Below, in pieces: positions 56,496 through 58,303 of a stretch of DNA of 64,000 nucleotides. The stretch's first letter is position 1. Each line of letters begins with the position of its first letter. Source of the stretch: Chloroflexota bacterium (GTDB taxonomy: Bacteria > Chloroflexota > Limnocylindria > Limnocylindrales > CSP1-4). The DNA is taken from NCBI GenBank assembly GCA_919901745.1, contig CAKKPP010000007.1:90753-154752 (forward strand). The letters are read 5' to 3'. The notes beneath the pieces were generated by a model. That model was not told the DNA's origin. It was given only the letters and a program-made list of their open reading frames with translations, and ran no database searches. The translations under genes and the position numbers were made by a program.

Positions 56496-57800
56496 TCAGT
56501 GCGTGGCGAGCGCCTGCCGGGCCAGGGCAAATGCCTCGTCGTGGCGCCCGAGTGCCGCCAGCGATTCGGCCCAGGAGGTGAGGATGGCCCTCCGACGCGA
56601 CGGCGGAGCATGCTCGGCGGCCCTGGCCGCCCCGGCGAAGGCGGCGGCGGCCTCATCGTGTCGTCCGAGCGCCGCGAGCGCCCTGGCGCGCGTCACCGAC
56701 GCGTCGAGGATTACGGCAGCGTGGCCGGCTCGTTGGGCCATGGCTTGCGCCTCGTCGGCGAGACGAAGCGCCATGTCCGCATCGCCGGTGCTCAGGGCGA
56801 TGACGGCCTGGGTGTCGATGACGTGCGAGGCCAGGCGGACGTCGCCGCGTGCCTCCGCGGTGCTGCGGGCCTTGGCAGCCAGCTCGCCGGCCTTCGTGGC
56901 ATTGCCCGCGGCCAGATAGGTCATGGCGAGTTCATTCTCGACGCGACCGATCTCGAGTTCCGATTCCGCCTGGCGCAGCAGGGCATGAGCCTGCGTTCCC
57001 GCCCGGAATGCACCTTCCAGATCGCCCGCGCCCTGGTAGGCCCGCGCGAGGCTGGCCAGCATCGTGCCTCGACGCTGGATGTCGAGGTCGGCCGCGAGCG
57101 AGCGAGCCTCCTCGAGATCGGCAATCGCTGCAGCGATCTCGCCGCGGCCCGTCTCGTTCATCGCGAGGGCAATCAGGACCCGGGTCGCGAAATCCGCCTG
57201 GACGGCGAGACCGGCGCGGATCCGGTCGTGAATCGCGCGCAACAAAGAGCGAGCCTCATCCGGGTTGTCCTGCTGGTAATGCGCTGACGACAACCAGTAG
57301 TCTGCCCACGCTCGCTCGGCTTCGCGCCCGAGGTCGGCAAACGCGGCGCTCGCCTCCGTCGCCGGCCGGATCGCCTCCGCCGGCCGGTCGAGGCGGCACA
57401 GCGCCTCGGCGAGTCCCAGTTGGAGCTCGGCCCGGGCCCCGCGCTCCTGGGCGACCTCGAGAAGGCCGACATATCCGTCAACCGCCTCCGCCCATTGCCC
57501 GGCGGCCAGGTTCAGGTCGACCTCGATCCTGCCCCAGGCGGCGCCGGGGTCGGCCAGGATCGCTGAGGCATTCGTCCCGAGGCGCGGCGCGAGATAGTTG
57601 AGGGCGGCCATGGACGGCTTGGCCAGGGCATTTTCGAGGGCCGAGATGTAGGCCTTGGTGAACCGTTCCCCGGCGAGTTGTTGCTGCGTCAGGCCGGCGG
57701 CGAGCCGCGCCTGGCGGATGCGTTGCCCGATCGCGCGGGCAAGTGGGGTGTCGTCAACGACGACGCGATGGCGGGTTCGGCGGGTCTGGATGGTATTCAT
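56496..57800 (-). CDS. XRE HTH regulator with C-terminal TPR-like repeats
   Basis: IGQRIRQARLAAGLTQQQLAGERFTKAYISALENALAKPSMAALNYLAPRL plus about 350 aa of TPR-like helical repeats. Confidence 0.88.
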   Translation of the reverse strand: MNTIQTRRTRHRVVVDDTPLARAIGQRIRQARLAAGLTQQQLAGERFTKAYISALENALAKPSMAALNYLAPRLGTNASAILADPGAAWGRIEVDLNLAAGQWAEAVDGYVGLLEVAQERGARAELQLGLAEALCRLDRPAEAIRPATEASAAFADLGREAERAWADYWLSSAHYQQDNPDEARSLLRAIHDRIRAGLAVQADFATRVLIALAMNETGRGEIAAAIADLEEARSLAADLDIQRRGTMLASLARAYQGAGDLEGAFRAGTQAHALLRQAESELEIGRVENELAMTYLAAGNATKAGELAAKARSTAEARGDVRLASHVIDTQAVIALSTGDADMALRLADEAQAMAQRAGHAAVILDASVTRARALAALGRHDEAAAAFAGAARAAEHAPPSRRRAILTSWAESLAALGRHDEAFALARQALATH

Positions 57801-58080
57801 GCCCGCGATTGTACACCTCGGTCATGCGCCTGTGAACCCCCTCGAAAAATTCGTCCATTGGGGTCCCGAGCCGGTCCGTGAGGATGGCCAGGGCCGGCAG
57901 GGACGGCACGGCCCGGCCGTGCTCGACCGCTGAGACATAGGCCCTGGTCATCGGCCGGCCCAATTCCGACTGGGTCAGTCCGTTGGAGAGTCGACGCGCG
58001 CGCAGCTCGTCGCCGATCGCTCGGCAGAGGGCCGAGCCGGATCCCGCGCGCTGATGTTTAGCAATACTTGACATTCGCAT
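57754..58080 (-). CDS. Short XRE HTH regulator overlapping the HTH-TPR gene
   Basis: IGDELRARRLSNGLTQSELGRPMTRAYVSAVEHGRAVPSLPALAILTDRL. Confidence 0.75.
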   Translation of the reverse strand: MRMSSIAKHQRAGSGSALCRAIGDELRARRLSNGLTQSELGRPMTRAYVSAVEHGRAVPSLPALAILTDRLGTPMDEFFEGVHRRMTEVYNRGHEYHPDPPNPPSRRR

Positions 58081-58096
58081 GCTGCAAGCGTAGCAT
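58068..58096 (+). promoter_or_regulatory. Near-consensus sigma70-type promoter TTGACA-N17-TAGCAT
   Basis: TTGACA 58068-58073, TAGCAT 58091-58096; ATGCT...AGCAT inverted repeat overlaps the -10 region. Confidence 0.6.
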
Positions 58097-58183
58097 CCCG
58101 GCCATCGCGTTGCAAAGCCTCGGTACCAGCCGTGGCAGCGATCGACCCGGGAGGCCGGGCCGAGATGTCAAGGAGGAGTCGTC

Positions 58184-58303
58184 ATGACCCGGTTTGCTCG
58201 TTCACGCATCGTCCTGTCGGCCATCTTCAGCTCGGCCCTGTCGGCCCTGATGACCGTTGCGACCGTCTTCGCCAGCAGCAGCAACGGTCCATACCCGAGG
58301 TAG
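58184..58303 (+). CDS. 39-aa putative secreted peptide (signal-peptide-like)
   Basis: MTRFARSRIVLSAIFSSALSALMTVATVFASSSNGPYPR*; AGGAGG Shine-Dalgarno 7 nt upstream of ATG. Confidence 0.6.
   Translation: MTRFARSRIVLSAIFSSALSALMTVATVFASSSNGPYPR

What the first reader, a model, noticed from the sequence alone, without database searches (positions are those of the whole stretch)
56496..58303. Candidate RRNPP-like peptide-regulator pair outside the usual Firmicutes setting
Seen: an XRE-HTH regulator with a long TPR-like C-terminus, an overlapping second HTH gene, and a divergent 39-aa ORF MTRFARSRIVLSAIFSSALSALMTVATVFA|SSSNGPYPR. The ORF has a perfect AGGAGG Shine-Dalgarno, basic n-region, hydrophobic core and V-F-A cleavage motif, leaving a nonapeptide. 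HTH-TPR receptor plus short exported pro-peptide is the architecture of PlcR/PapR, NprR/NprX and related systems. In a Chloroflexota-like genome this would be a new peptide signalling system.
Basis: partly seen in the sequence, partly recalled or inferred. Interest (0 to 1): 0.85.

Follow-up and report, generated by a model that had tools for sequence, protein, structure and literature searches.

The report
Peptide signalling pair in Chloroflexota bacteria
A tiny exported peptide and the DNA-binding TPR protein encoded beside it are inherited together across a large group of Chloroflexota bacteria, which strongly suggests a peptide-based cell-to-cell signalling system of a kind so far described only in Firmicutes.

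Summary
The 39-aa ORF (58184-58303 +) lies divergent to an XRE gene (57754-58080 -) and an XRE-TPR gene (56496-57800 -). In the same taxonomic family, 46 of 58 genomes with the XRE-TPR gene carry the peptide beside it, against 0 of 48 without it. The peptides share a basic n-region, hydrophobic core, V/A-x-A cleavage site and a tail of about 8-9 residues; 120 of 125 distinct sequences end in [FYWILV]-P-(R/K/H/Q). The ORF is under purifying selection in frame. Its promoter carries an operator that occurs once in the genome and moves with the peptide when gene order changes. Tail sequence covaries with the concave TPR face more than with the rest of the receptor. Some genomes hold two receptor-peptide pairs with different tails, and one propeptide carries the tail twice. 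Related XRE-TPR genes elsewhere in the phylum have their own short peptides. Named relatives are Candidatus Limnocylindrales / Chloroflexota; the published RRNPP surveys I read cover only Firmicutes. Best reading: an RRNPP-like exported-peptide/receptor circuit in a new phylum. Peptide binding, re-import and output genes are inferred, not shown.

The parts
58184..58303 (+). 39-aa propeptide gene: n-region MTRFARSR, hydrophobic core, predicted cleavage VFA|SSSNGPYPR (stop codon included)
   Evidence: Conserved ORF, Shine-Dalgarno, in-frame purifying selection in relatives; cleavage site inferred from the V/A-x-A pattern, SignalP not available
56496..57800 (-). 434-aa XRE-HTH + TPR protein, proposed peptide receptor and DNA-binding regulator
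   Evidence: Pfam HTH_31 and TPR_12; AF2 model mean pLDDT 92; Foldseek PlcR-PapR 3u3w E 3.5e-7 and Rap-pheromone
57754..58080 (-). 108-aa XRE-HTH protein, probably cotranscribed with and overlapping the receptor gene; likely leaderless
   Evidence: Pfam HTH_31; conserved beside the receptor in about 24 loci; leaderless start inferred from sequence
58057..58072 (+). operator TTTAGCAATACTTGAC (core AGYAATAST, imperfect palindrome)
   Evidence: Conserved in the peptide promoters of relatives; only perfect copy in the 3.04-Mb genome
58068..58096 (+). sigma-70-type promoter of the peptide, TTGACA-17-TAGCAT, -35 overlapping the operator
   Evidence: 10 of 12 matches; shuffles mean 0.0

Best explanation
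An RRNPP-like peptide signalling circuit. The 39-aa propeptide is exported by Sec and cut by signal peptidase I after V/A-x-A, releasing about nine residues (here SSSNGPYPR). The mature peptide is taken back up by an oligopeptide permease and binds the concave groove of the XRE-TPR protein, changing its binding to the operator that overlaps the -35 box of the peptide's own promoter, so the circuit feeds back on peptide production. The small XRE protein probably shares this operator. Shown here: gene conservation and linkage, coding selection, propeptide design, operator conservation and its single copy, receptor fold, tail-groove covariation, presence of import and cleavage enzymes. Inferred: cleavage, re-import, binding, sign of regulation (repression relieved by peptide slightly favoured because a near-consensus -35 is covered) and target genes.
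For: Linkage: 46 of 58 receptor-bearing family genomes against 0 of 48 others, Fisher 4e-19 (the counts were tallied by hand from the first two, and G089, whose contig ends inside the XRE gene, was left out). Position-independent linkage: in G170, G171, G165 the peptide is downstream and convergent, and an operator-like TAATASTTGAT (one copy weaker) sits before it. Paralogous pairs with different tails in G170 and G171. Tandem tail copies DLAGAPWPK...DLAGAPWPR in G078. pN/pS 0.33 in frame versus 1.3 and 1.9 out of frame; codon-position differences 47/33/98. Tail motif in 120 of 125 distinct peptides. Tail distance follows concave TPR positions (r 0.38) more than the rest of the TPR (0.25); partial r 0.30, 0 of 2000 permutations; 0 of 300 random TPR column sets do as well. 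Fold match to PlcR-PapR and Rap-pheromone complexes and sequence match to PlcR, NprR and Rap chains. SBP_bac_5 in all 107 genomes, 9 in own; signal peptidase.
Against: No binding, expression, peptidomic or phenotype data. The operator has no second good copy in the genome, so no target beyond the circuit itself was found, and no neighbouring gene is conserved. About 12 of 58 receptors in the family, and several paralogues in the second family, have no recognisable peptide nearby. Permease and signal peptidase are general housekeeping functions and do not discriminate. SignalP was not available. The covariation test permutes related sequences, so its p value is optimistic, and concave positions were assigned from TPR register, not from coordinates of a complex.
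Confidence: 0.75

Rival explanations
1. The XRE and XRE-TPR proteins regulate a small secreted peptide that acts outside the cell (antimicrobial, matrix or host/neighbour-directed peptide) and never binds the TPR protein.
For: Operator directly on the peptide promoter; small cationic-ended tails; no target genes besides the peptide were found.
Against: Linkage survives change of gene order; tail covaries with the receptor's concave face; separate receptors have separate tails. An 8-9 residue tail is very short for an antimicrobial.
Confidence: 0.13
2. The product is an uncleaved single-span membrane microprotein whose short outer tail interacts with an envelope partner, with the XRE proteins as its regulators.
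For: Hydrophobic core and basic N-terminus also fit a membrane anchor.
Against: Alanine at the expected -1 cleavage position is at least 90% conserved with V/A at -3; tandem tail copies in G078 make little sense for an anchor.
Confidence: 0.07
3. A toxin-antitoxin-like pair: a small hydrophobic toxin controlled by XRE regulators.
For: Weak similarity of the XRE domains to the HipB-type antitoxin model (E 3-5e-5, far below its cut-off).
Against: Conserved exported tail; long TPR receptor retained without the small XRE in many genomes; purifying selection on tail codons (pN/pS 0.31).
Confidence: 0.03
4. The short ORF is a chance ORF or a leader read only for regulation.
For: It is short and lies in a regulatory region.
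Against: Null rate 1 per 409 kb against 42 of 57 loci; amino-acid-level selection; occurs away from the receptor promoter in three genomes.
Confidence: 0.01

Closest known systems
PlcR-PapR (Bacillus cereus group)
   Same: XRE-type HTH plus TPR receptor, adjacent short Sec-exported propeptide, mature peptide at the C-terminus; Foldseek match to PlcR-PapR7-DNA 3u3w E 3.5e-7
   Different: Different phylum; longer TPR region (about nine helical hairpins in the model versus the five-TPR PlcR); divergent or convergent peptide gene; unrelated tail motif; extra small XRE gene in many loci
NprR-NprX and Rap-Phr
   Same: Long TPR array; sequence-profile hits to NprR (4gpk, 5dbk) and Rap (3q15, 4gyo) chains and fold hits to Rap-pheromone complexes
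   Different: Low sequence identity (12-16% in fold alignments); no phosphatase role indicated; not found by published Firmicutes-only surveys
NsdA-family TPR regulators (Actinomycetota)
   Same: Best NCBIfam match of the receptor, E 1.3e-11
   Different: 44.7 bits against a cut-off of 75, so not a member by that model; no peptide partner is known to me for NsdA (own knowledge)
Tandemly duplicated RRNPPA propeptides (PMC11343458)
   Same: G078 propeptide carries two near-identical tail copies
   Different: Seen here in one genus of a different phylum; processing untested

Membership tests
RRNPP-type quorum-sensing systems (five criteria of PMC10075063) | Propeptide is 10-100 aa | tested here: met
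   39 aa; orthologues 35-61 aa
RRNPP-type quorum-sensing systems (five criteria of PMC10075063) | Propeptide secreted by Sec (SignalP-positive) | tested here: inconclusive
   Basic n-region, hydrophobic core, conserved V/A-x-A; SignalP itself could not be run
RRNPP-type quorum-sensing systems (five criteria of PMC10075063) | Receptor about 250-500 aa | tested here: met
   434 aa; orthologues about 430-457 aa
RRNPP-type quorum-sensing systems (five criteria of PMC10075063) | Receptor carries TPRs | tested here: met
   TPR_12 in 49 of 49 orthologues; AF2 helical superhelix
RRNPP-type quorum-sensing systems (five criteria of PMC10075063) | Propeptide and receptor genes adjacent | tested here: met
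   Adjacent to the XRE/XRE-TPR pair in most genomes
RRNPP-type quorum-sensing systems (five criteria of PMC10075063) | Mature peptide is re-imported and binds the receptor | not testable with these tools
   Permease components present; covariation of tail and groove is indirect
RRNPPA protein family by descent | Receptor shares ancestry with Rap/Rgg/NprR/PlcR/PrgX/AimR, rather than an independent HTH-TPR fusion | not tested
   Profile hits to PlcR HTH, NprR and Rap TPR exist, but many unrelated TPR proteins score as well or better; no tree was built

The most novel reading that the evidence does not exclude
Exported-peptide/XRE-TPR signalling is widespread across Chloroflexota as a set of diverged peptide families (P-F-P-R type, cysteine-pair type ACDP..GGLC, -CC type, LPGPR type), making peptide quorum sensing of this design much older or more widely spread than the Firmicutes.
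Probability: 0.5. Interest if true: 0.9.

Novelty: new variant of a known kind. Interest (0 to 1): 0.8.

Why it matters
Intracellular-receptor peptide signalling is treated as a Firmicutes trait, and the surveys read here searched only Firmicutes and viruses (PMC10075063) or Firmicutes (PMC9765709). A conserved receptor-peptide pair across many genera of an abundant, mostly uncultured phylum would show that such bacteria have peptide communication, supply dozens of predicted signal sequences that can be synthesised and tested directly, and give an outgroup for the origin of the RRNPP architecture.

Tried and rejected
Chance ORF: rejected by null rates and selection. Regulon by operator search: no second credible copy in the genome; the reversed-pattern control gave more hits. 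Output by conserved neighbours: none beyond the module. Genome-contig scan with the receptor found one weak gammaproteobacterial TPR protein, uninformative. Viral-contig scans gave no answer twice, so mobile-element carriage is untested. 16S comparison with plasmid records gave no useful placement. Peptide search first failed on a 40-residue minimum and was repeated with an alignment whose first row is 41 aa. The IclR-like gene downstream was considered as part of the system and dropped because it is not conserved. Two dN/dS scripts failed on missing names; pair selection was automatic (closest equal-length pairs at 60% identity or more).

Full report
What is there. The nearest named relatives of the receptor are mostly Candidatus Limnocylindrales or Chloroflexota metagenome-assembled genomes; one is labelled Clostridia. 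The genome itself is unnamed by the tools, so the phylum is inferred from those names.

Is the short ORF real. In 107 genomes of the family, 58 carry the XRE-TPR gene (41-60% identity). The peptide stands beside the XRE/XRE-TPR genes in 46 of them and in none of 48 genomes lacking the gene (hand tally; G089 excluded because its contig ends in the XRE gene). A strict signal-peptide ORF design occurs once in 409 kb of flanks on both strands but in 42 of 57 upstream regions. Closest equal-length pairs give pN/pS 0.33 in frame, 1.3 and 1.9 in shifted frames, and nucleotide differences fall 47/33/98 on codon positions 1/2/3. The gene is therefore translated and selected as protein.

What the peptide looks like. 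R in the n-region, A at the predicted -1 site and P near the end are at least 90% conserved. Of 125 distinct sequences, 120 end in an aromatic or aliphatic residue, P, and usually R, K, H or Q. In genome G078 the propeptide holds the tail twice (DLAGAPWPK...DLAGAPWPR). In G001 the tail appears to be in another frame, possibly a sequence error.

Linkage without a shared promoter. In a second family of the class, G170, G171 and G165 have the peptide downstream of and convergent with the receptor. G170 and G171 each also hold a second receptor-peptide pair with a different tail (GQPP[FI]PR versus [ST]GGGDFP). An operator-like TAATASTTGAT stands before the relocated peptides, clearest in G171 and G165.

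Operator. TTTAGCAATACTTGAC (58057-58072) overlaps the -35 box of a sigma-70-like promoter. It is conserved upstream of the peptide in most family loci, with variants such as TTTACAAATACTTGAC in loci lacking the small XRE gene. It has one perfect copy in the genome and no other convincing match. The circuit therefore appears to regulate itself; other targets, if any, were not found. No neighbouring gene is conserved.

Receptor. AF2 gives a confident TPR superhelix (mean pLDDT 92, pTM 0.76). Foldseek's best hits are eukaryotic TPR proteins binding extended peptides (LGN), and the bacterial ones include PlcR-PapR-DNA and Rap-pheromone complexes. Across 36 pairs, tail distance correlates with distance at concave helix-A positions (r 0.38) more than with the rest of the TPR (0.25) or the outer helix-B face (0.19); partial r 0.30, none of 2000 permutations and none of 300 random column sets reached it. 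Relatedness of the sequences makes these p values optimistic.

Wider spread. A profile of the receptors finds more distant XRE-TPR genes across the phylum. Of 33 such loci from other families, 20 have a short signal-peptide-like ORF nearby against a chance expectation of about 7% per locus. Several form clear families: MSIRR...ACDPxxxGGLC, MRKL...CC, MPMYRLLALIATVVAAVLAVADGLPGPR. These were not studied further.

Machinery. Nine SBP_bac_5 oligopeptide-binding proteins and a type I signal peptidase are encoded in the genome. They are compatible with export and re-import but are general.

Comparison. Against the five published criteria for RRNPP systems (PMC10075063), four are met and the Sec criterion is met by design but not by SignalP. 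Surveys read here covered Firmicutes and viruses (PMC10075063) or Firmicutes (PMC9765709), and a structural phylogeny (PMC12700828) names no Chloroflexota. Text searches for RRNPP with Chloroflexi found one paper with a passing mention of both, not read in detail; other searches found nothing relevant. Subscription papers and bioRxiv preprints were not searchable. It works like an RRNPP system; whether it belongs to the RRNPPA family by descent was not tested.

Verdict. Supported interpretation, confidence 0.75 that this is an exported-peptide/TPR-receptor circuit. Binding, import, sign of regulation and output remain to be shown.

Noticed in passing
L185-L192: More distant XRE-TPR genes in another family have short signal-peptide ORFs with conserved cysteines (ACDPxxxGGLC upstream...CC overlapping the receptor stop), possibly disulfide-bearing signals.
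   Followed up: partly
L162-L177: Other families in the phylum have MRKL...CC or ...LPGPR short peptides beside XRE-TPR genes.
   Followed up: partly
L056 (G078), near 6.07 kb: Propeptide with two tandem copies of the tail, DLAGAPWPK and DLAGAPWPR.
   Followed up: partly
L078 (G001), near 6.4 kb: Peptide ORF runs on in frame while a PFPK-stop tail sits in another frame; possible sequencing error or decay.
   Followed up: no
window 58715-59111 (+): ACT-domain-like ORF (MRAFIVTLVNQPGSLADVTEAIAARG...) without a Pfam match; resemblance is from reading the sequence.
   Followed up: no
window 55897-56484 (-): IclR/MarR-type winged-helix gene directly downstream of the receptor gene, not conserved in other loci.
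   Followed up: partly
window 54274-55860 (-): Membrane protein fused to a sulfite-oxidase-type molybdopterin domain.
   Followed up: no
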